A stretch of 20,733 bases of DNA from positions 1 through 20,733 of IMG/VR virus record IMGVR_UViG_3300017963_000842, one strand, 5' to 3'. Source of the DNA: a virus. The notes under the pieces are model-generated. The model saw nothing but the letters and a program-made list of their open reading frames with translations. It was not told where the DNA came from and did not search any database. Shown piece by piece: positions 385-15,291 of the stretch. Position 1 is the stretch's first letter. Each line of letters begins with the position of its first letter. The translations under genes and the position numbers were made by a program.

Positions 385-600
385 TTATACCTCTTTATAG
401 TGGGATTTTACTTCTGTGTTCATTTCTTTTACAGAGTGAACGTTCGCTGTAAGAACCCATGACTCCAGAATTTCTGCATTGGACATGGACTTGAACTCTT
501 CTTTGAGTTCCGGGTCTGTTTCTTTGTCCAGCATCTTGTTGGCTTCTTTTACTATGACTTCCCATTCGGCATTCGTTATTTCGATTGTAAAAGTTTTCAT
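385..600 (-). CDS. Small acidic protein of unknown function (71 aa)
   Basis: The leftward frame begins MKTFTIEITNAEWEVI and is rich in Glu and Lys. The N-terminal part looks like a beta-strand followed by helices, and the length resembles small phage regulators or inhibitors. I chose the ATG at 600 because GGAGG lies just upstream (about 610-606). A second in-frame ATG at 612 overlaps that ribosome binding site and is unlikely to be used. The gene is the first coding frame downstream of the candidate structured RNA and two leader hairpins, and is followed after 9 bases by the 169-375 gene. No known family is recognised. Confidence 0.65.
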   Translation of the reverse strand: MKTFTIEITNAEWEVIVKEANKMLDKETDPELKEEFKSMSNAEILESWVLTANVHSVKEMNTEVKSHYKEV

Positions 601-646
601 TTCTACCTCCATATGAGTTAAGGTTATAAGCTAACAACTATCAGAG

Positions 647-669
647 GGTACGAATCAAAGACTCATACC
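647..669 (-). promoter_or_regulatory. Leader hairpin with wobble pairs that hides a GGAGG
   Basis: On the minus strand GGUAUGAGUC (669-660), a UUU loop and GAUUCGUACC (656-647) pair over 10 bp, with two G-U wobbles. Read on the plus strand the same two positions become C-A mismatches, so the structure is favoured only in leftward RNA. A GGAGG at 672-668 overlaps the foot of the stem. It lies about 50 bases upstream of the 385-600 gene. Regulation of that gene is an inference. Confidence 0.45.
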
Positions 670-677
670 TCCTGAAA

Positions 678-706
678 GTTGTTAACGAATAGAATCCGTT
701 AACAAC
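678..706 (-). promoter_or_regulatory. 10-bp perfect inverted repeat upstream of the leftward genes
   Basis: GTTGTTAACG (678-687) and CGTTAACAAC (697-706) form a perfect 10-bp inverted repeat with a 9-base spacer. It lies between the candidate structured RNA and the 385-600 gene. It could be an RNA hairpin that terminates or processes the leftward transcript (no U-run follows), or an operator for a dimeric repressor. A related half-site, CTAACAAC, occurs at about 631-638. Confidence 0.45.
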
Positions 707-720
707 TGGTGATAGTATTT

Positions 721-1189
721 AAAAGGAGAATTAAGCATTACTTATTGGATCTAATTCCAATGACGTGGGAGTCTTGAGTTCTACTCCCGAAATTGTTCCG
801 CATTGCCGGCTCACTGCCTCTTAGGCGCTACGTTGCGGATTTCCCGTATAAGGTCTCTCGACGCGCGGTTTACCTTTGCTTAGTACTTTCCGCCGATTCA
901 TGAGGACTCGGCTTGGAACTTTGTTCATGCAAGTTTACAGTTTCGGAGTAGACCTTTCCGTCACCGGAGTGACCGTCCTTTCTACTCCCTTCTCTGCCGG
1001 CAATGTCCTTCCACATCCACCGGATTTGGTCTGTACTTTCCACCGAGCGACTTTTTTGTGTCGTGGTCTCGGTTCCGCTGGGAGTAGTTCCCGGAGGCTT
1101 GTTCCCGTGCGCGGTATGTCAAAGGCCCGAAGGCATCGCTTGTTTCCAACCCCTGTTGGTTGCACCCAATGTGCCGTTCGTTGTAACCT
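721..1189 (-). ncRNA. Candidate large structured RNA (about 450-470 nt), minus strand
   Basis: This block is markedly more G+C-rich than the AT-rich DNA on both sides and has no convincing coding frame. A near-consensus promoter points into it from 1224-1196. Minus-strand RNA can form: CCAAC/GUUGG (1159-1146, loop AGGG), GCC-UUCG-GGC (1134-1125), CCGC/GCGG (1114-1111 with 1078-1075), CCGAG/CUCGG plus CGAC/GUCG (1072-1043), GUCAC-UCCG-GUGAC (973-960), GCCGA/UCGGC (912-892), UCCGCA/UGCGGA (839-834 with 802-797) enclosing GCC/GGC (826-816), and AUUGGA/UCCAAU (761-744). A CAUUGCCGGC/GCCGGCAAUG pair (1005-996 with 810-801) would form a pseudoknot. The 14-nt UCGGYGGAAAGUAC occurs at 1046-1033 and 896-883, each time closing a hairpin. 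Size and phage context recall GOLLD and ROOL RNAs, but I cannot match it to either. The 3' end is a guess at the UUCUCCUUUU near 721. It could instead be a long structured leader of the leftward operon. Confidence 0.55.
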
Positions 1190-1195
1190 GCGGCA

Positions 1196-1224
1196 ATTGT
1201 ACTGTTTTTTAATGGATTTGTCAA
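1196..1224 (-). promoter_or_regulatory. Strong sigma70-type promoter firing leftward
   Basis: On the minus strand the -35 box is TTGACA (1224-1219, perfect consensus), the spacer is exactly 17 bp, and the -10 box is TACAAT (1201-1196, one mismatch). The expected start of transcription is near 1189. It drives the candidate structured RNA and possibly the leftward small genes beyond it. No coding start lies within several hundred bases downstream. Confidence 0.7.
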
Positions 1225-1493
1225 CGATATTAAAGAAACCAAATAAAAAAAGTTTGTTAAATACGTGAATAGCTAACAGAGTGGATTTATTACAGAAATT
1301 TACATAGATTCCTTAGGTATCACTGAAATTTCTCTTGAATTTGTACACGACCCATGTATTGTGTATTTTATGCTGTTTTTTGAGGATTCGGCCGTTTTTT
1401 ACCCTGAAATTTTTTGTAATGATTAGAGTAACTTACGGCTCACTGAATCATATTCATTTATAAGAAGTCCCTATAATACAAGGATGGTCCTAA
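1225..1493. other. AT-rich intergenic region before the late operon
   Basis: No gene is visible here. The stretch is AT-rich with several T-runs. It separates the leftward promoter from the rightward terminase gene and probably holds the rightward late promoter, but I cannot define one. A perfect TATAAT at 1472-1477 has no matching -35 box and would start transcription downstream of the TerS ribosome binding site. No strong hairpin is seen. Confidence 0.4.
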
Positions 1494-2216
1494 ATGCCCA
1501 GAACAAAACATCCCGGAATCATTAGAGAATTTGGTCGTGTTGATCCCACAAGAATCGGTACAAAAAGTCCCTCCGGTTATGTGAGAAAAACAGGAAGAAT
1601 CTATAATCACTCAGCTGATCTGCCTGTTGGGAATCTAAAGAATAAGAAATATAATGAGGAGTTGTTTCCGGAGCAGTGTTATATTGCCTGCAGTCAAATG
1701 GGTGCCACTCAGGAAGACCTTGCTCAACTCTTTGGTGTTTCTTATAATACAATAAAAGGATGGATGAAAAGATACCCGGAGTTCAGGGATGCATTTAGAA
1801 AAGGAAAAGATGAGTATGACACGGATGCAGTAGAAAGAAAAGCTTTACTCCGGGCAACAGGATATGATTTCAAGAAAACAAAAACAGTTAAGAAACGTAT
1901 CTTAGTAGATAAAGAAAGAATGATTTATAAATGGATGACAGTAGAAAAGCATTCAGAACTCCACCATATCCCACCTGATCCCAAATCATTTATATTCTGG
2001 CTTAGGAATAGAAACCCGGAACGTTGGCCAGATGTACTCTTAAACCGTTCTACGGTTGTAGGTGATAAAGAACAACCCATAGAACACAATCACAACCATA
2101 ATCACCAACTCGATCTTTCTGATCTCCCTACAGAACAACTCGAAATTATAATTGCCAGTATGTTAAATCAACAGAAACAAATCACATATGATCAGGAAGC
2201 GGAAATTATAGAATGA
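1494..2216 (+). CDS. Terminase small subunit (TerS)
   Basis: This 240-residue protein probably recognises the packaging site on phage DNA and loads the large subunit. Residues about 69-97 form a clear helix-turn-helix (ATQEDLAQLFGVSYNTIKGW), typical of phage terminase small subunits. A helical central region follows (WLRNRNPERWPD near 170), then a His/Asn-rich linker (alternating H and N around residue 200) and a C-terminal helix that may bind TerL. The start is the ATG after AAGGA at 1480-1484. Its end overlaps the TerL start by four bases (ATGA), so the two are translationally coupled. Assignment rests on the domain and on TerL being the next gene. Confidence 0.85.
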   Translation: MPRTKHPGIIREFGRVDPTRIGTKSPSGYVRKTGRIYNHSADLPVGNLKNKKYNEELFPEQCYIACSQMGATQEDLAQLFGVSYNTIKGWMKRYPEFRDAFRKGKDEYDTDAVERKALLRATGYDFKKTKTVKKRILVDKERMIYKWMTVEKHSELHHIPPDPKSFIFWLRNRNPERWPDVLLNRSTVVGDKEQPIEHNHNHNHQLDLSDLPTEQLEIIIASMLNQQKQITYDQEAEIIE

Positions 2217-3787
2217 GAACTCTTACACCACAAGCTCAACAAGAGCAAATCATACAGCAACTCCAATCAGCCACCATAACTGATTTCAAGGCAGAGCTCT
2301 GTAGACGTAGCTTTTTCTATTTCGTAAAGGAATTCTGGAATATTATTGTACAAGATCCATTCGAACTCAATTGGCATATAGAATATCTTTGTAATGAATT
2401 ACAGGAAGTGGCAGAAAGGGTAATATTAAGAAAACCCAGATTATACGATTTAATTATAAATATCCCTCCGGGTACCACCAAGTCTACCGTGTGTACCCGT
2501 ATGTTCCCAGCGTGGGTATGGATTGCAAAGATTAAGATTAAGATTAGAGTCAATAACTCAAATAGTAAGAGTACTCAGAAAAATAACAGACCGGATTATA
2601 TATTAAAGAGTGGAACAAACTCAAGATTCATAACCGCATCTTATTCCGCACCATTATCATTGGAACATGCGGAGGATAGTAGAGACTTGATTAAGAGTGA
2701 TAAATACCAGAAGTACTTCCCGGAAGTAAGAATAAAACGGGATAGGGATATAAAGAGTAATTATAAGAATACGAAGGGTGGGAGTCGATTCAGTACATCT
2801 GTTGGAGGAACAGTTACCGGAATGCATGGTCACTTCTTGATAGTAGATGATCCTCTTGATCCGAATAAGGCTATTAGTGAAGCAGAAAGGAATACCGCGA
2901 ACAACTGGATGTCTAAGACCCTATCAACCAGAAAAGTAAATAAGAAAATAACAGTCACCATTCTTATAATGCAAAGAGTACATGAACTTGATCCTTCCGG
3001 ACATTTACTTCAAACCAGAAAAGAAGAAGGGGATATTAAACATATTTGTTTGCCCGGGACAACGGAGTACTCTATTAAACCATCGGAATTAGAATCTAAT
3101 TATGTAGACGGATTACTCGACCCAAACCGACTCGGTAAAAAAGAACTCCGGAAGATGAGAACAGAGTTAGGTTCCTACGGATATGCTGGTCAGGTAGGAC
3201 AAGATCCGAAACCCAGAGAAGGGGCCATGTTTCAGAGGCAGTGGTTTGAAGTAGTAGATGCGGCTCCGGCAAAAGGGGAGATAGTTAGAGGATGGGATTT
3301 GGCGGCTACTTCAGAAGCGGAAGCACTCATGAAGAATCTTAGTCCTGCTTATACAGCTGGAGTAAAGATGAAATATAAGAATGGAGTATTCTATGTAATG
3401 CATATGACTCGGGGCCGTTGGAATTCTATGAAAGTCAGGGAAACAATGAAGAACACCGCTTCTCAAGATGGAGGAGTAGTTACCATTGATTTTCCACAAG
3501 ACCCGGGACAGTCTGGAAAATCACAGGCTCAGGATATTAGCAAGTTTTTAGTAGGGTATAAAGTAAAGTTCTCTCCGGAGTCAGGTGATAAGGTAGTTAG
3601 AGCAGATCCATTTGCCGCACAATGCGAAGCGGGGAATGTTAAGATAGTAAGAGGGGATTGGAACGAAACTTTTTTTGATGAGGTATGTTCCTTTCCCAAT
3701 TCGGAGTTCAAGGATATAGTCGATGCCTGTTCCCGGGCATTCAAGTACTTACACATTAATGTAAAGAAAAAAGTAGGAGTCTGGTGA
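2213..3787 (+). CDS. Terminase large subunit (TerL), packaging ATPase and nuclease
   Basis: This is the motor that drives DNA into the prohead and cuts concatemers. The 524 residues contain a Walker A variant PPGTTKST (85-92), Walker B LIVDD (209-213) and the start of an RNase H-like nuclease domain at GWDLAAT (360-366), with later acidic residues near TIDFPQD and DIVDA. It is a normal size for the family, but between Walker A and the strand RFITASYS there is an extra run of about 30 polar residues (about 106-136). At DNA level this run begins with three tandem AAGATT copies (2528-2545). The start overlaps TerS (ATGA) and the stop overlaps the portal start. Function is confident; the effect of the insert is unknown. 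Confidence 0.93.
   Translation: MRTLTPQAQQEQIIQQLQSATITDFKAELCRRSFFYFVKEFWNIIVQDPFELNWHIEYLCNELQEVAERVILRKPRLYDLIINIPPGTTKSTVCTRMFPAWVWIAKIKIKIRVNNSNSKSTQKNNRPDYILKSGTNSRFITASYSAPLSLEHAEDSRDLIKSDKYQKYFPEVRIKRDRDIKSNYKNTKGGSRFSTSVGGTVTGMHGHFLIVDDPLDPNKAISEAERNTANNWMSKTLSTRKVNKKITVTILIMQRVHELDPSGHLLQTRKEEGDIKHICLPGTTEYSIKPSELESNYVDGLLDPNRLGKKELRKMRTELGSYGYAGQVGQDPKPREGAMFQRQWFEVVDAAPAKGEIVRGWDLAATSEAEALMKNLSPAYTAGVKMKYKNGVFYVMHMTRGRWNSMKVRETMKNTASQDGGVVTIDFPQDPGQSGKSQAQDISKFLVGYKVKFSPESGDKVVRADPFAAQCEAGNVKIVRGDWNETFFDEVCSFPNSEFKDIVDACSRAFKYLHINVKKKVGVW
2528..2545 (+). repeat. Tandem AAGATT x3 inside terL
   Basis: Three exact head-to-tail copies of the hexamer AAGATT encode a Lys/Ile run (KIKIKI) at the start of the unusual insert in the terminase large subunit. 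The unit is a multiple of three, so copy-number change would keep the frame. Short tandem arrays of this kind can arise by slippage. Confidence 0.6.
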
Positions 3788-5244
3788 TGAGAACAAAATT
3801 CGGAAGTAACAAAAAGTCGAACGTCATCCAAATGAATGAGTCTATGGTGGCTAACAGAGAGTTGATGGCATTGGCTTCTACGATGGTGAGTAGAGCGAAG
3901 TTAGCTTCTGCTTTGGGAAAGTCCTATGATGGGGATAGAAATATCTATACGGCTCTGGGCTATAAAACCAGTCCAACATTTGATGACTACTATGCCCGGT
4001 ATAGTAGACAGGATATCGCCAAACGAATAGTAAATGCTCCTGCAGATTCTTCATGGCGTAAGAAACCGGAAGTATCAGAATCAGAAGATGGGGAAACGGC
4101 ATTCGAGAAGGCGTGGACAGAATTACTTGATGATACCCTTGTATATCATTATTTAACCAGAGTAGATCGAATCACAGGGATAGGAGAGTATGGAGTACTT
4201 TTAATGGGATTTGATGATGGGTTGGAATTGTATGAGCCCATAGAAAAGGCAAAACAATTACTCTACATTCGTCCTTATTCCCAGATTAACGCAACTGTGA
4301 AAAATTGGGATACGGATACCGGAAGTGAACGGTATGGAAAACCTTTACTCTATTCTCTTAAACCTGCAAATGCAGAACGAACAACTGTTCAACCATTGGA
4401 AGTTCATTATTCCAGAGTTCTTCATATAGCTGAGAACTGCGAAGAGGATGATATATACGGTACCCCACGTCTAAAGTCAGTACTCAATCGACTGCAGGAT
4501 TTGGAATTGGTGTCTGGTGGAAGTGCAGAGATGTTCTGGAGGGGAGCATTCCCGGGATTGGGTTTTCAGGCGGACGCTGATGCGGAATGGGATCCGCAAG
4601 TACTCACAGATTTAAGAACGGAAATAGAGGAGTACATGCACGGAATGAAACGGTATCTACGACTCAAGGGGATTGATATTGAGCAGTTGACTCCTCAGGT
4701 TGCCGATCCGTCTAAACATATTTCTGTTCTTATTGATCTTATATCAGGGGCAACCGGAATTCCCAAACGGATTCTTATTGGGAGTGAACGTGGGGAGCTT
4801 GCTTCGAGTCAAGACGAAAACAACTGGAATGCCAGAGTGGCAGAACGTAGGGAGGATTTTGCAGAACCAATTATACTTAGACCATTTATTAATAAACTTA
4901 TTGAAGTGGGAGTACTTCCGGAGCCGAAAGATGGATATACCATTTTCTGGCCTCCAATTACTTCCCCGGATGAGAAGACGGATGCCGATGTTCTAAAGAT
5001 TAAAACGGAAGCCATTACGAAGTATTCTGCCACTCCGGGTGCTGATCTTCTTATTCCTCCTGATTTCTATCTTACCAAATTCCTTGGACTGAGTGAGGAA
5101 GAAGTACAACAGATAGAACAAATGATCACAACCCTAATCGCCAGTGAGCAGAAAAAGATAGAGGAAGAAAGAGCTCAAATGGAAATCGAACGGGCAAAGC
5201 GTCAGAAGGAGTTAGATGTAGAAGGAGACGAAGATGATGAGTAG
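3787..5244 (+). CDS. Portal protein (DUF1073 type)
   Basis: The portal forms the ring at one capsid vertex through which DNA passes and to which the terminase and neck bind. The 485 residues carry the hallmark region of DUF1073 portals: DDYYARYSRQDIAKRIVNAP near residue 65, a TGIGEYGVLLMGFDDG segment near 130, and GIPKRILIGSERGELASSQDE near 325. The C-terminal 60 residues are a charged helix rich in Glu and Lys. A GTG at 3784 is possible, but the ATG at 3787 is better spaced from AGGAG (3775-3779). The TerL stop overlaps the start. The 3' end overlaps the next small gene by 11 bases. Confidence 0.88.
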   Translation: MRTKFGSNKKSNVIQMNESMVANRELMALASTMVSRAKLASALGKSYDGDRNIYTALGYKTSPTFDDYYARYSRQDIAKRIVNAPADSSWRKKPEVSESEDGETAFEKAWTELLDDTLVYHYLTRVDRITGIGEYGVLLMGFDDGLELYEPIEKAKQLLYIRPYSQINATVKNWDTDTGSERYGKPLLYSLKPANAERTTVQPLEVHYSRVLHIAENCEEDDIYGTPRLKSVLNRLQDLELVSGGSAEMFWRGAFPGLGFQADADAEWDPQVLTDLRTEIEEYMHGMKRYLRLKGIDIEQLTPQVADPSKHISVLIDLISGATGIPKRILIGSERGELASSQDENNWNARVAERREDFAEPIILRPFINKLIEVGVLPEPKDGYTIFWPPITSPDEKTDADVLKIKTEAITKYSATPGADLLIPPDFYLTKFLGLSEEEVQQIEQMITTLIASEQKKIEEERAQMEIERAKRQKELDVEGDEDDE

Positions 5245-5485
5245 AGCAATCATTTATCTTGTACCAAAGGAGTTAGCTGTTATGGATGATACGAGTAAAT
5301 ATGATAAATATGAAAATAACTCGTACCATAAAACCAGAAAACAGATTCTGGAGGAATGGGAAAGAGAAGTGAATTTCTTTGAACGGATGATGGAAGAAGA
5401 AACAAAAAAGAGTCATCACGTTCCTCCATCTGCTTTGACCCATCAGGTTCCACATCATAAGGTATTTAGGAATCAAACTCGATGA
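5234..5485 (+). CDS. Small protein of unknown function (83 aa) between portal and MuF
   Basis: This is a hydrophilic protein of 83 residues with a likely helical centre (TRKQILEEWEREVNFFERMMEEE) and a His-rich tail. It starts within the end of the portal gene at ATG 5234 or 5237, after GGAG at 5224. A third possible start, ATG 5282, has its own AAGGAG nine bases upstream and would give 67 residues. Its stop overlaps the MuF start by four bases, so it sits inside the coupled head operon. I do not recognise a family. A minor head or assembly role is only suggested by position. Confidence 0.65.
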   Translation: MMSRAIIYLVPKELAVMDDTSKYDKYENNSYHKTRKQILEEWEREVNFFERMMEEETKKSHHVPPSALTHQVPHHKVFRNQTR

Positions 5486-8199
5486 CAAATCTTGCACTCA
5501 AAATAAATGCGATTAGAGGACTCAAAGGGAGTCAACCTTTTCAAGTCCCCATTCGCGCTACAATGGCAAAAGACCCTACACAGACCATAATGCTTAGGCA
5601 TGCGTGGATCATGGACACCAACGCGCGATTTGGTGCCCTTAAGTCGGTAATACGCACAAGCATTGTGGACAATGACTGCTTCGGTCTTAAGGAAAAGCCA
5701 AAAGACGTCGCAGAAATTATTGCGATGTCACGACTCCAGGATGAACTTGATAAGTTGACTCCTGTTACTCCGAATGGATTCGCCTACAATAAGAACCAAA
5801 GAAAAGTAAGTGGGTTTATGTCATGGTTAAGGGAACAGGAACAACTCGGTATTCTGGAAGTCACAGCTGGACGAGCCCGGGATGGAGTTGACGCATGGTC
5901 AAATGTGTATATTCGTTCTTCTTATCAGAAAGGACTCCAACGTGCCAGACAAGATTTAATTGCCACCGGAGTAGAGTTAAATCCTTTTTCTGAAATACCT
6001 GGAGGAGTCGGAACTGTATTCAAACAACCTTTCCATGCGGAAGCGGTAGGACTCATTTATACCCGAGTGTATGATGAACTCCGTGGTGTGACCAGAGCAA
6101 TGGATGGGGATATATCAAGAGTACTATCCCGGGGACTGGCAGAAGGGAAAGGTCCGGAAGCTTTAGCCAGAGCATTAAATCAAAGAGTAGATGCGATTGG
6201 AGTGAACCGAGCAAGGCTGATAGCCAGAACAGAAACAGTTCTTGCTTTCAATACTGCGGCCATTAACTCCTATACTTCCGCAGAACAGATTATTGGAAAG
6301 ACTATCTATGTACAATGGTGGACTGCAGGTGATGCCAAAGTACGACCCGCCCATATCGAACGTCATGGAGAAGTATATAAGAAAGACGAAGCGTATGATA
6401 TGCTGGGAGAACCGAACTGCCGTTGTACAGTACTTCCATATATACCGGATTGGAAAACGAAAGGAAAGGTCGGTGGAGTGGAAGGAAAAGGAGTTGTTCC
6501 TTCTGAGGCAATGCAAGAAGCCGTTTATGGTGGCCCGGGAATCATATCTGCCATTATTGATATAGCTTCACAGGGAAAGTATATGAGTGCGGATGATGTA
6601 GTAGAACAACTCATACCACTCTTTCCGGGTAGAAGTGCAGAAGCCATGCGTAAAACGGTCACGGCACAACTCGGTTCTCAGTTAAAGTCAAAAGGGTATG
6701 TAATTGAGAAAATGAAAGAGGGAAGGAAGACTCTATATAAAATTGCAAGGAAACCGGATGGGAAGAAAGTTAAACCGAAACCCAAGCCGAAGCCGGTAGT
6801 CAAACCAAAGCCGGATAAGAAAGTTAAACCGAAACCCGGTCCGACTCCTCCTCCTACTAAAGCAAAGACTGTGACTGGAGCCATCATAGATATTGCCAGT
6901 GAGGATTTCGTTACCGTAGACCAAGTTACAGAAGCACTCAAGAAGTTGTTTCCGGATAGAGTAAGAGCAAAGATGCGGAAAACAGTTCAGGCTCAACTCG
7001 GTTCACAGCTCCGGGCAAAAGGATATGTGATTGAGAAATATAAAGAAGGGCGGATTACTTATTATAAGATTACTGGTAAACCGGATGGAAAGAAAGTAGT
7101 CCCCAAGAAAACAACTCCTGCGAAAAAGACCATTCCTAAGAAACCGGAAAAGATAGATAAGGCAGGACTCCAGATGTTGTTAGATGATTTGGAGGAACAG
7201 AAGCTTATTTTACAAAAGGAGTTGACTGATTTAAATTCGAGTAATCTTAGTTCTATAGATAAATATATGAAGAGGACTTTAATTGAAGCGGAATTAAAAC
7301 AACTCCGACTTCAGATAGCGAGTGTTTACTATGAACAGAAAGACTTCGCAGCTATTCGTCAAATGAAACGTGATAGAGTATTCCCGAGAGTGTCTAAAGA
7401 TAGTCAAACACTACTCGCGAAATCAGGTAAGCTTGCACATTTCAATAAGGTAGTAGATGATGCATTTGATTATATGCCCTATGACTTAGTAGAAGACCTA
7501 ATGGAGAACTCCAAGATATATCTTCATGATAAAAGATACTTTCGAGCATACCATCAAGGTATGTATACGGGAGGAGATTTATATAGTTCAAATATTCATT
7601 TGGGACTTTATAATTTGGACTCTACTACTATGGCTCATGAATTCGCTCATGCAATAGATCAATATTGGAGTGGAAAAAGAAATAGAGTTGGTGGTTGGTG
7701 GAGTGATAGTAAATATATTAAAAAGAAGGACGGTGATAAATATCGTAAGTTGTTTAAGAATCAACATTCTGGTAAAAAGAGAATATACACTAATGGGGAC
7801 GGGGAGTACTGGGAAGACAATTGGATTCATAATTATGAAGGACGTGTTTATACTCGTAGTTATGGAGATACCGGGATAGAGTGGTGGTCGATGAACATGC
7901 AACGGTATGCTGAATATCGTACGATTCAAAATGACCTCAAAAGTAATATAGTGAAAACCCAAAGAGTTTGGAGAAGAGATATTGATTTTTTAAAACAGAC
8001 AATTAAAGAAGCACCAAAATATTCATATCGTAGTGAGTATGCGAAAAAACAGTTAAAGAAGTATGGTGATTTCGATAAGTATATACAACTAAAGGCATTA
8101 GAAGTAAGTAATTGGGACGCTGTAAGGGAGAAGTATACCCATCTTGCTAAATTCATTGAAGATAAATTTAATACTAACTTTATAGCATACGGAAAATAA
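5482..8199 (+). CDS. MuF minor head protein fused to winged-helix-like repeats and an HExxH metallopeptidase-like domain
   Basis: The N-terminal 345 residues form a phage Mu gpF/SPP1 gp7-type head morphogenesis protein, with the signature from ARTETVLAFNTAAINSY (about 248) to PNCRCTVLPYI (about 311-321). Such proteins bind the portal and may be ejected with the DNA. The C-terminal 560 residues are an addition: a winged-helix-like repeat (about 353-430), a Lys/Pro-rich linker (about 431-463), a second, clearly homologous repeat (about 465-542), a coiled-coil-like region (about 560-630) and a zincin-like domain with H719-E-F-A-H723. E in GIEWW may be the third zinc ligand. The DNA becomes more AT-rich in the last 600 bases, consistent with an exchangeable tail as in MuF polymorphic toxins. 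The substrate is unknown. It may be a protease acting on head proteins or an effector delivered to the host. Confidence 0.85.
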   Translation: MTNLALKINAIRGLKGSQPFQVPIRATMAKDPTQTIMLRHAWIMDTNARFGALKSVIRTSIVDNDCFGLKEKPKDVAEIIAMSRLQDELDKLTPVTPNGFAYNKNQRKVSGFMSWLREQEQLGILEVTAGRARDGVDAWSNVYIRSSYQKGLQRARQDLIATGVELNPFSEIPGGVGTVFKQPFHAEAVGLIYTRVYDELRGVTRAMDGDISRVLSRGLAEGKGPEALARALNQRVDAIGVNRARLIARTETVLAFNTAAINSYTSAEQIIGKTIYVQWWTAGDAKVRPAHIERHGEVYKKDEAYDMLGEPNCRCTVLPYIPDWKTKGKVGGVEGKGVVPSEAMQEAVYGGPGIISAIIDIASQGKYMSADDVVEQLIPLFPGRSAEAMRKTVTAQLGSQLKSKGYVIEKMKEGRKTLYKIARKPDGKKVKPKPKPKPVVKPKPDKKVKPKPGPTPPPTKAKTVTGAIIDIASEDFVTVDQVTEALKKLFPDRVRAKMRKTVQAQLGSQLRAKGYVIEKYKEGRITYYKITGKPDGKKVVPKKTTPAKKTIPKKPEKIDKAGLQMLLDDLEEQKLILQKELTDLNSSNLSSIDKYMKRTLIEAELKQLRLQIASVYYEQKDFAAIRQMKRDRVFPRVSKDSQTLLAKSGKLAHFNKVVDDAFDYMPYDLVEDLMENSKIYLHDKRYFRAYHQGMYTGGDLYSSNIHLGLYNLDSTTMAHEFAHAIDQYWSGKRNRVGGWWSDSKYIKKKDGDKYRKLFKNQHSGKKRIYTNGDGEYWEDNWIHNYEGRVYTRSYGDTGIEWWSMNMQRYAEYRTIQNDLKSNIVKTQRVWRRDIDFLKQTIKEAPKYSYRSEYAKKQLKKYGDFDKYIQLKALEVSNWDAVREKYTHLAKFIEDKFNTNFIAYGK

Positions 8200-10575: not shown

Positions 10576-11628
10576 ATGAGAGACGCGAATGTTGATACCT
10601 TTTTTCAGGGAAAGGCATTTGGTCCTGTTGCACAGCGTTTGGTGGCCAATGGGATGAATGCTGGAGCCCTGCGTCCATGGGAAGAGGAAGGTGGTGATTC
10701 CTACATCAATGTGAATGGTCAGTTGATCCGGGTTAACGCTTCCACTCTTCGTAAAGATGAGTGGAAAGACATGGATCAGGCAGTACTCAAGGCCGCTCAA
10801 CAGAGACTGATTGGAGTTACAGACTTAAATTCCCGGGGATTGACCTATAACATCAGCAATGGTCTGGGAACCACGGTTCTGGAGTATGAGAACCTTGGTG
10901 ACATTTCAGACGCTGAAATGAATATGGATGCAGTAACCCGCGGCCGGGATGATCGTCCGAAATACGACATCGCTTATTTGCCCCTGCCGGTCATCCATAA
11001 ATCTTTTCATTTCAATATCCGTGCGCTGGCCGCTTCCAGAACGAGTGGTGCTCCTCTGGATACCACGATGGCTGAGATGTGTGGCCGTATGGTTGCTGAA
11101 AAGGTTGAGAGTATACTCTTCAATGGTTCCGGGACATTTGCCTATGGCGGTGGCACCATTTATGGGTATACCGATTTCCCGAGTCGTTTGACGGGTTCAC
11201 TCACGGCTGCTTGGGACGCTTCAGCTGCTACCGGGGCTACCATGTTAACTGACCTCCGTGCCATGAAACAGGCGAGTATTGATGCCCGCCATTATGGGCC
11301 GTGGGTAGTGTACATTCCCACCTCTTACGAAACGGCTTTGGATGCAGATTTTAAAGCTGCTTCCGATAAGACCATTCGGGAACGCTTACTCGAAGTGGGT
11401 GGGATTCTGGATATCAAGGTCGCTGATTTTCTGAGTACCGATTGTGTGCTCATGGTTCAAATGACCTCCAACGTTGTCCGCATGGTCAATGGTCTGGGTA
11501 TTACTCCGGTGGAATGGGATTCCGAGGGCGGTATGGTTTTCCATTACAAGGTCATGACCATCCAGGTTCCCCAGCTCCGTGCCGACCAGAACAGCCGAAC
11601 CGGCATCGTTCACTACTCCGAGCCCTAA
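10576..11628 (+). CDS. Major capsid protein (HK97 fold)
   Basis: This 350-residue protein follows AAGGAGG and directly precedes a strong terminator. It has the character of an HK97-fold capsid protein without a long delta domain: an N-terminal arm (VDTFFQGKAFGPVAQRLV), a central helix ending LFNGSGTFAYGGGTIYGYTDFP near 180-200, a helix LTDLRAMKQASIDARHYGPWVVYIPTSYETALD near 225-255, and a C-terminal strand pair VEWDSEGGMVFHYKVMTIQVPQLR. The GxxIYGYT element is seen in encapsulin-like capsid proteins. It is followed by no other capsid candidate. Its codon choice and strong ribosome binding site suit the most abundant virion protein. No separate protease-cleavable prodomain is obvious. Confidence 0.88.
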   Translation: MRDANVDTFFQGKAFGPVAQRLVANGMNAGALRPWEEEGGDSYINVNGQLIRVNASTLRKDEWKDMDQAVLKAAQQRLIGVTDLNSRGLTYNISNGLGTTVLEYENLGDISDAEMNMDAVTRGRDDRPKYDIAYLPLPVIHKSFHFNIRALAASRTSGAPLDTTMAEMCGRMVAEKVESILFNGSGTFAYGGGTIYGYTDFPSRLTGSLTAAWDASAATGATMLTDLRAMKQASIDARHYGPWVVYIPTSYETALDADFKAASDKTIRERLLEVGGILDIKVADFLSTDCVLMVQMTSNVVRMVNGLGITPVEWDSEGGMVFHYKVMTIQVPQLRADQNSRTGIVHYSEP

Positions 11629-12103: not shown

Positions 12104-12739
12104 ATGATTGATCATCCTTGGTCCCCTCCAAAAATGTGGCAGGGTAATACTGCTTATATAATTGGAGGAGGCCCGAGCCTTAAGAGTCAGGACTTATCGC
12201 TGATCCATAAGAAACGTGTAATCGGAGTTAATAATGCTTTTTTACTTGGCGACTGGGTGGATGTCTGTTGGTTCGGGGATATGCAATGGGGGCGCTGGCA
12301 TAAGAAAGAACTCCTTACTAAATATCACGGTCTGGTAGCATCTTGTAATACAAATACTCATTTCGTCAGGAACCATCCCTGGATCAAATTTCTTCGTAGA
12401 GGAAAGGCGATGGGGATCGATCCTCAACCCGCACACGTTTCCTGGAATCACAACTCCGGCTGTAGTGCCATCAATTTAGCCTACCACTTCGGAGCCACAC
12501 GGATAGTCCTTCTCGGGTTCGATATGTCCAATGGAAAGAAAGGTGAAACACATTGGCATGGCGGACACAAACAACTCCCAAAAGATCAAAAAGGAAACAA
12601 CACCCCATATTCACGCTGGGTCAAGACAACTGCTTTCATATATCGGGATGCCAGAAAACTGGGAATAGAGATTTTAAATGCTTCCCCGATTACTACCATA
12701 ACCGTATTTCCAAAAGTTAAATTGGAGGACGTGGTATGA
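12104..12739 (+). CDS. DUF115/Maf-like putative glycosyltransferase
   Basis: This 211-residue protein has a Rossmann-like N-terminus: AYIIGGGPSLKSQD (17-30) followed by VIGVNNAFLLGDWVDVCWFGD (39-59). The conserved NSGCSAINLAYHFGATRIVLLGFDM is at about 117-141. This is the pattern of DUF115/MptE-like proteins, whose flagellar relatives (Maf) are linked to transfer of nonulosonic acids onto Ser/Thr of flagellin. The phage copy is a short, catalytic-core-sized version. It starts directly after the preceding stop (TAAATG) and overlaps the next gene by four bases. In this setting it may transfer a sugar, possibly to a virion protein. Donor and acceptor are unknown, and the family includes non-transferase members. 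Confidence 0.7.
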   Translation: MIDHPWSPPKMWQGNTAYIIGGGPSLKSQDLSLIHKKRVIGVNNAFLLGDWVDVCWFGDMQWGRWHKKELLTKYHGLVASCNTNTHFVRNHPWIKFLRRGKAMGIDPQPAHVSWNHNSGCSAINLAYHFGATRIVLLGFDMSNGKKGETHWHGGHKQLPKDQKGNNTPYSRWVKTTAFIYRDARKLGIEILNASPITTITVFPKVKLEDVV

Positions 12740-13173
12740 TTCAAGAAACTACTTTAAATGATTGCAAGGTTTGGAATGAAAATCTTGTGAATATTTATGA
12801 TTCTGTGATTGGTTATAAGACCAGCATTGGAACATTTGTGGAAATAAGTGGAGCTCATATAGGCGATTATTGTACTATCGGGGCTTATACTTTTATTCCT
12901 GTTGGAGTAGTACTTGGAAATAATGTATGGGTTGGTCCCAGAGTTACTTTTACCAATGATAAATATCCTCCAACTTCTAAAGATGATCCCCGTTACCCTT
13001 GGCCTACTATTGTTGAGGATGACGTGGTTATTGGTGCAGGAGCTTTAATACTCCCGGGTGTTACAATCGGCAAAGGTGCCATGATTGGAGCCGGGGCTAT
13101 CGTAACCAAAGATGTTGGGCCGGGCCAGATGTGGTATGGCCCTTGTGCCGAGTACCAAGGAGTTTCAAAATGA
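12736..13173 (+). CDS. Hexapeptide-repeat (left-handed beta-helix) acyltransferase
   Basis: The 145 residues are built of isoleucine-patch hexapeptides: IGTFVEISGAHIGDYCTIGAYTFI near 32-55, then VWVGPRVTFTNDKYP and a second run (VIGAGALILPGVTIGKGAMIGAGAIVTKDV) near 98-127. This folds as a trimeric left-handed beta-helix, using acyl-CoA to acylate an amino sugar. The NDKYP loop and the compact size resemble N-acetyltransferases for 3-amino-3-deoxy sugars (WlbB/QdtC-like). It overlaps both neighbours by four bases (ATGA), with GGAGG before the start. It probably acetylates a sugar nucleotide made or transferred by its neighbours. The exact substrate is not shown. Confidence 0.85.
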   Translation: MIQETTLNDCKVWNENLVNIYDSVIGYKTSIGTFVEISGAHIGDYCTIGAYTFIPVGVVLGNNVWVGPRVTFTNDKYPPTSKDDPRYPWPTIVEDDVVIGAGALILPGVTIGKGAMIGAGAIVTKDVGPGQMWYGPCAEYQGVSK

Positions 13174-13844
13174 AACCAACATTTGCATGCGTGTATAGAA
13201 CGGGTGGTGATTATAATACTCGTGATGTACTCCGTCTTAAGCATAACGTTGAAAAACGTACAACTATGGATTTTAATTTTGTATGCCTGACAGATGATAC
13301 TACTCTACTACTTACCAATGAACATGGAGTTGTGGTAGATAGTGTTACAGAAGAACATTGGGCTCAACCATTATTTGGTAATTATAAGGGCTGGTGGTCT
13401 TTGATAGAGTTGTTTCGACTCACTGGTCCTGTAGTTATTACTGGTCTCGATACTGTTTTTGTTGGTTCTGTTGATCCCTTTCTTCAATTAGCCAAGAGTC
13501 TTACGGAAGAGGAGTTTTACATGATCCATGCCTTTAAAAAGAATGAGGTATGGGCTTCCGGGTTTATGATTTGGAATGGTGACTGGTCATGGCTTCTTGA
13601 TGATTTTAAATACAAGGAACATTCCGCTAAGTATCAATGGGAGCAACGGTATACAAAATTTTCTTTACTTAAACGGGGAGTCGAAATAAAAGGAGTGCAA
13701 GATCAAATAGATGGCATCTACTCCTATAAACATCATTGCCGTGGAAAGGGTGGTCCTCCAAAAGATGCAAGAGCTATTTTGTTTCATGGAAGACCACGAC
13801 CCGGGAATGTTAGAGAGAGTTGGATAAAAAAGGAGTGGAAATGA
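13170..13844 (+). CDS. Putative glycosyltransferase (GT8-like fold)
   Basis: The protein has 224 residues, starting at the ATG 13170 behind AAGGAG and overlapping the previous stop by four bases. The N-terminal KPTFACVYRTGGDY begins a nucleotide-sugar transferase-like fold. GWWSLIELFRL (74-84) precedes TGLDTVFVGSVDPF (91-104), which aligns with the metal-binding DxD region of GT8-type enzymes, although the first Asp is Gly here. VWASGFMIWNGDWSWLLDDF and the late ILFHGRPRP are also typical. It likely adds a sugar using an NDP-sugar. The altered DxD leaves open a metal-independent or non-catalytic role. It overlaps the next gene by four bases. Confidence 0.78.
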   Translation: MKPTFACVYRTGGDYNTRDVLRLKHNVEKRTTMDFNFVCLTDDTTLLLTNEHGVVVDSVTEEHWAQPLFGNYKGWWSLIELFRLTGPVVITGLDTVFVGSVDPFLQLAKSLTEEEFYMIHAFKKNEVWASGFMIWNGDWSWLLDDFKYKEHSAKYQWEQRYTKFSLLKRGVEIKGVQDQIDGIYSYKHHCRGKGGPPKDARAILFHGRPRPGNVRESWIKKEWK

Positions 13845-14443
13845 TAAACAACTTTACACAAAGATTCCCCGGTGTTCGGCAAAGTAGAATCGAGCAGACG
13901 AAGGAACAGGTTGAAGAGAAATGGATTGGGGATGGTGGAGTTAGTCTCGCTCATCCCCCCGAATGGAAGAAGCTCGAAGATAATATTGTAAAGGCCGTCA
14001 AGGACGAATGTATTGGAAAGGTTTGTGAGATAGGTTGTGGAACAGGTCGAGTCGCAAAGTTGTTCCATCCAAAGAGTTATATAGGATTGGATATTAATCC
14101 TATGGCTTTGGAAGTGGCAGAGAGGCATAATCCTAAACATTCTTTTGATTTAATAATGTGGGAAAGCTTGTACCCGGGAGCTACCACTTATTTATTCTTT
14201 ACTGTCATGCTCCATATTCCGGATTCGGAGTTATGGGGTATTGTTCGTAAACTGGATAATAGAGTCGTCATTGTGGAGGCGATGGGTCGTTGGATTCGAG
14301 ACTATGGTAAGGGTAACAACTACCAGAGGGATCCGGAGGAATACAGGAAAGTGTTTTCCCGTATTGGTATGAAAGAGAAATCCCTGTCTCATTGTCACCA
14401 GTATCATTTTCCTTACTATCTCGATATCATGGTATTTGAGTAG
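13841..14443 (+). CDS. SAM-dependent methyltransferase (class I)
   Basis: This 200-residue protein has motif I VCEIGCGTGR (61-70), then IGLDINPMALEVAE (81-94) with the acidic residue that holds the SAM ribose, and TTYLFFTVMLHIPDSEL near 118-134 as the post-motif region. The N-terminal extension of 60 residues is helical. I chose the ATG at 13841 (AAGGAG upstream, ATGA overlap with the glycosyltransferase); a TTG at 13820 lacks a site. This type methylates small molecules or sugars as well as other targets, and no DNA-methylase target-recognition domain is seen. Being the last of four tightly coupled sugar-related genes, a sugar O- or N-methyltransferase is the best guess. Confidence 0.82.
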   Translation: MINNFTQRFPGVRQSRIEQTKEQVEEKWIGDGGVSLAHPPEWKKLEDNIVKAVKDECIGKVCEIGCGTGRVAKLFHPKSYIGLDINPMALEVAERHNPKHSFDLIMWESLYPGATTYLFFTVMLHIPDSELWGIVRKLDNRVVIVEAMGRWIRDYGKGNNYQRDPEEYRKVFSRIGMKEKSLSHCHQYHFPYYLDIMVFE

Positions 14444-14574
14444 AACGGCTGCGGGACACGTGCATCTTATAGACTTTCGAGGACAGGACAACTCCTAATC
14501 CGGCCATGGAAAAAGAACCTAAGAAAGAATTTAATAACGGTCGCCGCGGCCGTTTTAACCAAAAGAGGAAAGCC

Positions 14575-15291
14575 ATGCTAAATGAACCAATATTAATAAC
14601 AGGATGTGCCAGATCCGGTACGAGCATGACTGCTGGTATTATCAATATCTGTGGAGCATGGGGAGGAAGAATGTCTGGCCCTAATGCCAATAATAAGAAA
14701 GGTATGTTCGAGAATGCTACCATTCGGAATAAAATGGTAAAGCCTTTCTTCCGTCAGATGGGAGTAGACCCTTTGGGACAAGCACCACTTCCGGATATAG
14801 ATGAGGTCAAGTTAGTATCTCAAGACTTTATTATTAACTGGCGACTTCGTATTCAGGAAATATTGGTAGAGCATGGATATGAGTTAACTGGCAACTCTCA
14901 ATGGTTTTACAAGGGAGCAAAGATGTGTCTGCATTGGCCGGTATGGCACAGAGCTTATCCGGATGCAAAGTGGATTATTGTTCGGAGGAAAAGTTCGGAT
15001 ATTGTTCGCTCTTGTTTAAAAACCGGGTTCATGAGAGCCTACCGAAATCAAGCGGGATGGCTTAAATGGATCGACGAGCACAAAGAACGGTTCATCGAGA
15101 TGAGGGAAGCAGGTTTAAATATTCAGTATGTATGGCCTCAGTTTATGATTGACCGGGACTTGACCGAAATCAGAAGAGTGGTCGAGAATTTGGGATTAAC
15201 TTGGAAACAGAAAGAAGTGGAGGCTTTTATAGAACCGGCCCTGTGGAGTGGTAAAGGGATGTCCGGTAAATCAACTCCGCGAAAAGGATAA
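14575..15291 (+). CDS. Sulfotransferase
   Basis: The 238 residues begin MLNEPILITGCARSGTSMT, containing the 5'-phosphosulfate loop CARSGTS (11-17). The 3'-phosphate-binding element RRKSSDIVRS is at about 137-146. These two motifs define PAPS-dependent sulfotransferases and related P-loop enzymes. I chose the ATG at 14575 because AGAGGAAA lies just before it; an upstream ATG at 14506 has no ribosome binding site and adds a basic, low-complexity 23 residues. A gap of 131 bases separates it from the methyltransferase, unlike the coupled genes before it, so it may be expressed separately. It would transfer sulfate from PAPS to a hydroxyl, probably on a sugar. PAPS would come from the host. Confidence 0.8.
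   Translation: MLNEPILITGCARSGTSMTAGIINICGAWGGRMSGPNANNKKGMFENATIRNKMVKPFFRQMGVDPLGQAPLPDIDEVKLVSQDFIINWRLRIQEILVEHGYELTGNSQWFYKGAKMCLHWPVWHRAYPDAKWIIVRRKSSDIVRSCLKTGFMRAYRNQAGWLKWIDEHKERFIEMREAGLNIQYVWPQFMIDRDLTEIRRVVENLGLTWKQKEVEAFIEPALWSGKGMSGKSTPRKG

What the first reader, a model, noticed from the sequence alone, without database searches (positions are those of the whole stretch)
721..1224. Candidate large ornate non-coding RNA with its own strong promoter
A roughly 450-470 nt G+C-rich island in AT-rich DNA has no credible gene, a near-perfect leftward promoter (TTGACA-17-TACAAT) and many nested or long-range pairings on the minus strand. Size, phage setting and intricacy recall GOLLD and ROOL RNAs, which are large structured RNAs found largely in phages and prophages, but I cannot match it to either. 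It may be a new class, or an unusually long structured leader for the leftward genes.
Basis: partly seen in the sequence, partly recalled or inferred. Interest (0 to 1): 0.85.

Follow-up and report, generated by a model that had tools for sequence, protein, structure and literature searches.

The report
Orphan candidate structured RNA in phage
A stretch of about 455 bases without a credible gene, next to the DNA-packaging genes of an unnamed phage, looks as if it makes a large folded RNA from a strong promoter, but no relative was found, so neither its structure nor its job is proven.

Summary
Window 735-1189 is 52% G+C between flanks of 31-34%. Codon scores are negative in six of six frames. 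A TTGACA-17-TACAAT promoter, the only 17-spaced site in 20.7 kb with one mismatch or fewer, points leftward into it.

The fold evidence is real but modest. The minus strand beats nearly all shuffles (z -2.2 to -3.3) and is better defined than the plus strand. By z it ranks first of 42 stretches for well-defined pairs, but second of 41 for stability. A 22-nt module occurs twice (18 of 22 identical, 0 of 200 shuffles).

No Rfam family matches the island, and no homologue was found in IMG/VR scans, phage and plasmid records, or 395 genomes of one phylum.

The strongest hairpin (630-686, z about -7) lies downstream, before the first leftward gene, with no terminator-like site between. The island may therefore be the start of a ~589-nt leader rather than a free RNA. 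The nearest relative has an unrelated, also structured spacer at the same place, which keeps a DNA-level function open.

The parts
1196..1224 (-). sigma-70-type promoter, TTGACA-17 nt-TACAAT, predicted start of transcription near 1189
   Evidence: 11 of 12 consensus; the only 17-spaced site with one mismatch or fewer in 20.7 kb. Transcription start is inferred from spacing, not observed.
735..1189 (-). candidate structured RNA, about 455 nt, G+C-rich and apparently non-coding
   Evidence: GC 52% vs flanks 31-34%, negative codon scores in six frames; MFE z about -2.2 to -3.3 and 160 nt paired with p>0.9, an excess on the minus strand only
1128..1180 (-). domain 1: helices 1180-1177/1131-1128, 1175-1172/1135-1132 and hairpin 1162-1158/1151-1147
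   Evidence: pair probabilities 0.97-0.99 alone and in RNA 1189-590, 0.78-0.83 if the RNA began at 1224
1007..1125 (-). domain 2: broken long helix 1125-1111/1020-1007 around hairpins 1092-1080 and 1073-1042
   Evidence: pair probabilities 0.91-0.99 alone and in RNA 1189-590
801..1005 (-). domain 3: closed by a 10-bp helix 1005-996/810-801, holds the long hairpin 988-981/952-945 with inner helix 973-969/964-960
   Evidence: pair probabilities 0.99-1.00 alone and in RNA 1189-590; a Watson-Crick helix of 10 bp or more occurs in 5 of 100 shuffles
1025..1046 (-). module copy A (3' strand of a hairpin, then GGAAAGTAC and CAAA)
   Evidence: 18 of 22 identical to copy B; 0 of 200 shuffles reach this; none of 20 control stretches of 455 bases reaches it
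875..896 (-). module copy B, after hairpin 912-908/896-892
   Evidence: its hairpin is less certain (p 0.63)
744..788 (-). 3'-side hairpins 788-783/772-767 and 761-756/749-744
   Evidence: pair probabilities 0.94 alone, 0.86-0.89 in RNA 1189-590
630..686 (-). strong hairpin between island and first leftward gene (25 pairs with two 1x1 mismatches); buries an AGGAGG
   Evidence: 620-734 minus strand z -7.2, plus strand -3.0; helices p 0.90-0.99
677..707 (.). palindrome AGTTGTTAACG...CGTTAACAACT sharing an arm with the hairpin; possible operator or alternative hairpin
   Evidence: 14-nt arms, 93% complementary
385..600 (-). first leftward gene, 71 aa from the ATG at 600, preceded by GGAGG; no known family
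   Evidence: ORF listed as 385-612; codon score +0.09; no PHROG, no Pfam family over its cut-off (best DUF6794, E 0.02); no tblastn match in phages

Best explanation
The island is the template of a discrete, multi-domain structured RNA of about 455 nt, transcribed leftward from the promoter at 1224-1196. It forms the first part of the transcript of the leftward (probably early) genes and folds independently of what follows. The most likely working mode is that the folded RNA itself is the product: it accumulates after cleavage or 3' end formation near 735, or stays attached, and acts through its fold (binding a phage or host protein or itself), as may be the case for the large phage RNAs GOLLD and ROOL, whose functions are also unknown. 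Shown here: non-coding composition, promoter sequence, strand-specific excess of well-defined predicted pairing, internal module repeat. Inferred: transcription, ends, action in trans, early timing.
For: Near-consensus promoter at the island's 5' edge. Codon usage unlike genes in six of six frames, and G+C far above both flanks. Minus strand folds better than most shuffles and is better defined than the plus strand. It has the highest z of 42 stretches for nucleotides paired with p>0.9 (3.96; best control 3.26; 20 shuffles each). With the downstream leader included, 15 of 16 island helices keep p>=0.85 (RNA 1189-590). Base make-up of the minus strand is G 28%, A 32%, C 24%, U 16%, with A mostly unpaired (mean 0.68) and U mostly paired (mean unpaired 0.27) in the prediction. 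A repeated 22-nt module, 0 of 200 shuffles. Long G+C-rich intergenic regions are where new structured RNAs have been found (PMC8723152, start of abstract in the listing; a related pipeline in PMC6429828, abstract and section list).
Against: No homologue and hence no covariation. Stability alone is not unique: one of 40 control windows is lower, and one control window has more well-defined pairs (200 nt against 160). In 120-nt pieces the island shows no marked stability. Ensemble entropy is matched by 10 and mean pair distance by 11 of 100 shuffles. The 5'-3' closing helix of the isolated island (p 0.96) is not predicted at p>0.5 in the longer transcripts, and several helices drop to p 0.7-0.8 if the RNA began at 1224. 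No terminator-like site at its 3' end.
Confidence: 0.38

Rival explanations
1. A long structured 5' leader (about 589 nt, 1189-601) that controls the leftward genes in cis, for example by pausing, antitermination or switching between hairpins, with the hairpin at 630-686 as the controlling end piece.
For: No terminator-like site on the minus strand between island and gene, and the promoter at 1224-1196 is the promoter-like site nearest upstream on that strand, with none in 1-1195. The hairpin before the gene is the most significant structure tested here around it (z -7.2), and one of its arms can pair with another partner instead (inverted repeats I1 and I2 share 677-690). Leftward genes of the nearest relative are NUDIX-like, DNA-binding-like and helicase genes, so an early operon is plausible.
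Against: The island's predicted helices change little when the downstream part is added, and no predicted helix above p 0.5 links island and hairpin. 455 nt is large for a cis regulator (recalled). No homologue of the gene was found to show a conserved link.
Confidence: 0.26
2. A DNA-level element between divergent early and late genes (packaging start, origin of replication, or regulator binding sites), whose base-pairing potential is incidental.
For: It lies directly upstream of the terminase small-subunit gene. The nearest relative by terminase (61% identical) has a spacer of about 950 bp at the same place, unrelated in sequence, rich in direct and inverted repeats and more stable than shuffles in 5 of 6 stretch-and-strand tests (z -3.75 to -6.92; the sixth -1.27).
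Against: In the window the excess of well-defined structure is on the minus strand, as expected of RNA rather than of DNA palindromes. The one clear palindrome (677-707) lies outside the island.
Confidence: 0.15
3. No function of its own: a decayed or horizontally acquired G+C-rich fragment.
For: No relative found; fold significance is modest.
Against: A near-consensus promoter at its edge, one-strand definition of the fold and an internal module repeat would all be coincidences. No convincing trace of a protein family.
Confidence: 0.21

Closest known systems
GOLLD RNA (Rfam RF02032)
   Same: Large structured RNA of phages and prophages, function unknown (PMC12286853, abstract and passages).
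   Different: Many GOLLD RNAs exceed 800 nt and they often lie near tRNA islands; here about 455 nt, no tRNA, and the model hits only elsewhere with 4.8 bits at 10743-10792, cut-off 150.
ROOL RNA (Rfam RF03087)
   Same: Large phage RNA with intricate predicted structure.
   Different: No match to its 574-position model (that call's controls were also silent), none in whole-Rfam scans; no tRNA in the window.
OLE RNA (RF01071) and HEARO (RF02033)
   Same: Structured bacterial RNAs (OLE about 600 nt, abstract start; HEARO's link to mobile elements is recalled).
   Different: No match in the window.
Long structured phage or bacterial mRNA leaders
   Same: Promoter, structured RNA, then genes in the same direction without a terminator-like site between.
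   Different: No Rfam riboswitch or leader family matches the island.

Membership tests
GOLLD | match to the Rfam covariance model | tested here: not met
   only 4.8 bits at 10743-10792, not at the island, cut-off 150; of 14 control genomes 5 rang, 0 over the cut-off. Whole-Rfam scans at E<=10: of 4 matches in 600-1500 none touches the island and none is GOLLD; 0 in 730-1195
GOLLD | near tRNA genes (often, not always) | tested here: not met
   0 tRNA genes in the 20.7-kb window; the contig is probably a fragment
ROOL | match to the Rfam covariance model | tested here: not met
   0 matches at E<=10 in the window (whose 14 control genomes were silent too, so weak by itself);
OLE | match to the Rfam covariance model | tested here: not met
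   0 matches at E<=10 (controls silent too);
HEARO | match to the Rfam covariance model | tested here: not met
   0 matches at E<=10; of 14 controls 2 rang, 0 over the cut-off;
structured non-coding RNA class (any) | covarying base pairs across homologues | not testable with these tools
   no homologue found
structured non-coding RNA class (any) | non-coding composition and folding beyond shuffles on one strand | tested here: met
   effect modest,
structured mRNA leader | transcript continues into a downstream gene | tested here: inconclusive
   no terminator-like site between; no transcript data

The most novel reading that the evidence does not exclude
The island is the first member of a new class of large ornate phage RNA, unrelated to GOLLD and ROOL, made early in infection from the promoter next to the packaging genes and built from at least three domains, two of which share a repeated hairpin-GGAAAGUAC module.
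Probability: 0.3. Interest if true: 0.75.

Novelty: new variant of a known kind. Interest (0 to 1): 0.4.

Why it matters
Few large structured RNAs of phages have been described, and the functions of GOLLD and ROOL are open (PMC12286853, passages). An unrelated one beside the packaging genes would give another, independent case for asking what phages use such RNAs for. As it stands it is one sequence without relatives, so it is a lead, not a class.

Tried and rejected
Known RNA family: rejected for lack of any match at the island (40-43). The one Rfam match below E 1 (mir-5470, E 0.003, 27.5 bits against a cut-off of 98, at 631-685) reflects the strong hairpin outside the island; the other three matches (E 1.1 to 7.8) also lie outside it. 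tRNA or tmRNA: none. Hidden protein: rejected. Group I or II intron: looked for by eye in the minus strand from recalled motifs and not recognised; no Rfam match supports it.

Homologue hunts that led nowhere. In IMG/VR: the terminase scan gave 25 loci; against them window 651-1480 gave no nhmmer hit and no blastn match better than E 0.076 (44 nt, outside the island). The module pattern gave 7 stretches and the double-module pattern 3, with no convincing similarity beyond the motif; by eye most look coding. Island frames as pseudo-proteins gave 3 and 38 stretches, 0 confirmed. The hairpin internal-loop pattern gave 2 and the palindrome pattern 11, several of them copies of one locus; none matches 601-1480 at E<=1. 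The leftward protein gave 10 stretches, 0 confirmed. These scans need exact short matches, so a divergent family could be missed. A covariance model made from this one sequence, given twice (213 positions), matched only the window, plus 8.4 bits at E 2.5 in L017, among 37 sources (window and 36 loci). It matched 0 of 13 further loci, 0 of 22 virus records (of the 25 terminase-related ones) and 0 of 395 genomes of the phylum of the one genome contig with a related terminase, titled Bacteroidetes (stricter filters). The empty genome answers had no positive control. Phage records: no match at E<=1; 3 records with 23-26-nt matches at E 2-6. Plasmids: none at E<=1.

Literature: the listings of searches (one returned none) showed no RNA beside a terminase gene that I recognised; subscription journals are mostly not held.

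Full report
Setting. The window is a whole virus record of 20,733 bases, probably a fragment. Rightward it carries terminase small and large subunits (1494-2216, 2213-3787), portal (3784-5244), head morphogenesis, major head protein and tape measure. Leftward lie two small orphan genes, 385-600 and 169-375, and the start of a third at 60. The leftward genes have good Shine-Dalgarno sequences, seen directly in the sequence. Of the 15 rows shown (2346 records matched), the best cultivated relatives by terminase are Croceibacter and Cellulophaga phages at about 41-42% identity, so the host is unknown.

Observation. The island 735-1189 has 52.3% G+C against 34% and 31% in its flanks. It does not look coding: log-odds of this phage's codon usage are negative in six of six frames; they are positive in the 14 rightward genes that made the table and in both leftward genes, which did not. 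Frames and ORFs searched gave no protein family or phage match beyond one PHROG hit of unknown function at E 0.099. The promoter TTGACA-17-TACAAT at 1224-1196 is the only 17-spaced site in the window with one mismatch or fewer and would start RNA near 1189 (inferred). Looser promoter-like sites are no commoner in 1-2400 than in shuffles (4 against 6.1).

Fold. I tested it in several ways because a single z-score is weak. Minus-strand MFE: z -2.15 for 478 nt (2 of 100 shuffles), -2.58 for 455 nt (3 of 200), -3.32 with only 24 shuffles. The plus strand: -1.38, -1.73, -2.01. Among 40 control windows of the same size one was lower, at -4.59, and one nearly equal, at -3.24. In 120-nt pieces the island is unremarkable. 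The number of nucleotides paired with p>0.9 is 160 on the minus strand against 73 in shuffles (2 of 100), and 94 on the plus strand (31 of 100); entropy and pair distance are matched by 10 and 11 of 100 shuffles. Against 40 control windows the island's z of 3.96 is the highest, the next being 3.26 in the head gene at 10900, which has more such nucleotides (200). So the fold is above chance and on one strand, but a coding window comes close.

Anatomy. Domain 1 is 1180-1128. Domain 2 is 1125-1007 with hairpins 1092-1080 and 1073-1042. Domain 3 is 1005-801, closed by a 10-bp helix and holding the hairpin 988-945. Then come two hairpins, 788-767 and 761-744. When the RNA is extended to 590, 15 of 16 island helices keep p>=0.85; the 5'-3' closing helix 1187-1183/741-737 does not survive, and if the RNA began at 1224 several helices fall to 0.7-0.8. 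A 22-nt module occurs twice, 150 nt apart, 18 of 22 identical, seen in 0 of 200 shuffles and in none of 20 control stretches. Both copies are the 3' side of a predicted hairpin followed by GGAAAGUAC; the hairpin of copy B is uncertain (p 0.63).

Downstream. The hairpin 630-686 is the strongest structure tested in the region (z -7.2). Its arm 677-690 can also pair with 694-707. No terminator-like site was found between promoter and gene on the minus strand.

Relatives. None of the 25 terminase-related viral loci holds a similar stretch. The two closest (L002 is contained in L003; 61% terminase identity) have a spacer of about 950 bp at the same place. It holds only overlapping ORFs of up to 132 aa (not tested further). 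It is rich in repeats, strongly structured in 5 of 6 tests, and unrelated in sequence. Their leftward genes resemble a NUDIX hydrolase, a DNA-binding protein and a DNA helicase, so the leftward direction is probably the early one (inference). Pattern, pseudo-protein, blastn and model searches for the island itself found no relative. Pattern scans need exact matches and the genome searches had no positive control, so a divergent family could be missed.

Judgement. It is a good single-sequence candidate for a structured RNA. A leader role is nearly as likely as a free RNA, a DNA element or chance is not excluded, and there is no evidence for membership in GOLLD, ROOL, OLE or HEARO.

Noticed in passing
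window 625-707: Very strong hairpin 630-686 (z about -7 on the minus strand) that buries an AGGAGG and overlaps a palindrome AGTTGTTAACG/CGTTAACAACT. The promoter's -35 region carries a half-site with 2 mismatches (CGTTGACAAAT, 1226-1216), one of 14 such sites in the window where shuffles give 5. Possible operator or switch.
   Followed up: partly
L003:4309-5261: Nearest relative's spacer between leftward genes and the terminase genes is full of direct and inverted repeats (a 28-nt repeat twice, inverted arms of up to 39 nt) and folds better than shuffles in 5 of 6 stretch-and-strand tests (z -3.75 to -6.92; the sixth -1.27).
   Followed up: partly
window 12104-15291: Between head and tail genes lie a sialyltransferase-like protein, a protein matching PHROGs of unknown function that reads like a hexapeptide-repeat acyltransferase (recalled), a glycosyltransferase-like protein and two proteins without PHROG match that read like a methyltransferase and a sulfotransferase (recalled): a possible glycan-modifying cassette inside the virion gene block.
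   Followed up: partly
window 5482-8199: The 905-aa head morphogenesis protein carries a C-terminal HEFAH (HExxH-type) metallopeptidase-like motif, read from the sequence; its PHROG matches lie within residues 18-643.
   Followed up: no
window 1225-1493: A+T-rich stretch (1190-1493 is 31% G+C) upstream of the terminase small subunit with short imperfect direct repeats (D2, D4, D5); possible packaging site.
   Followed up: no
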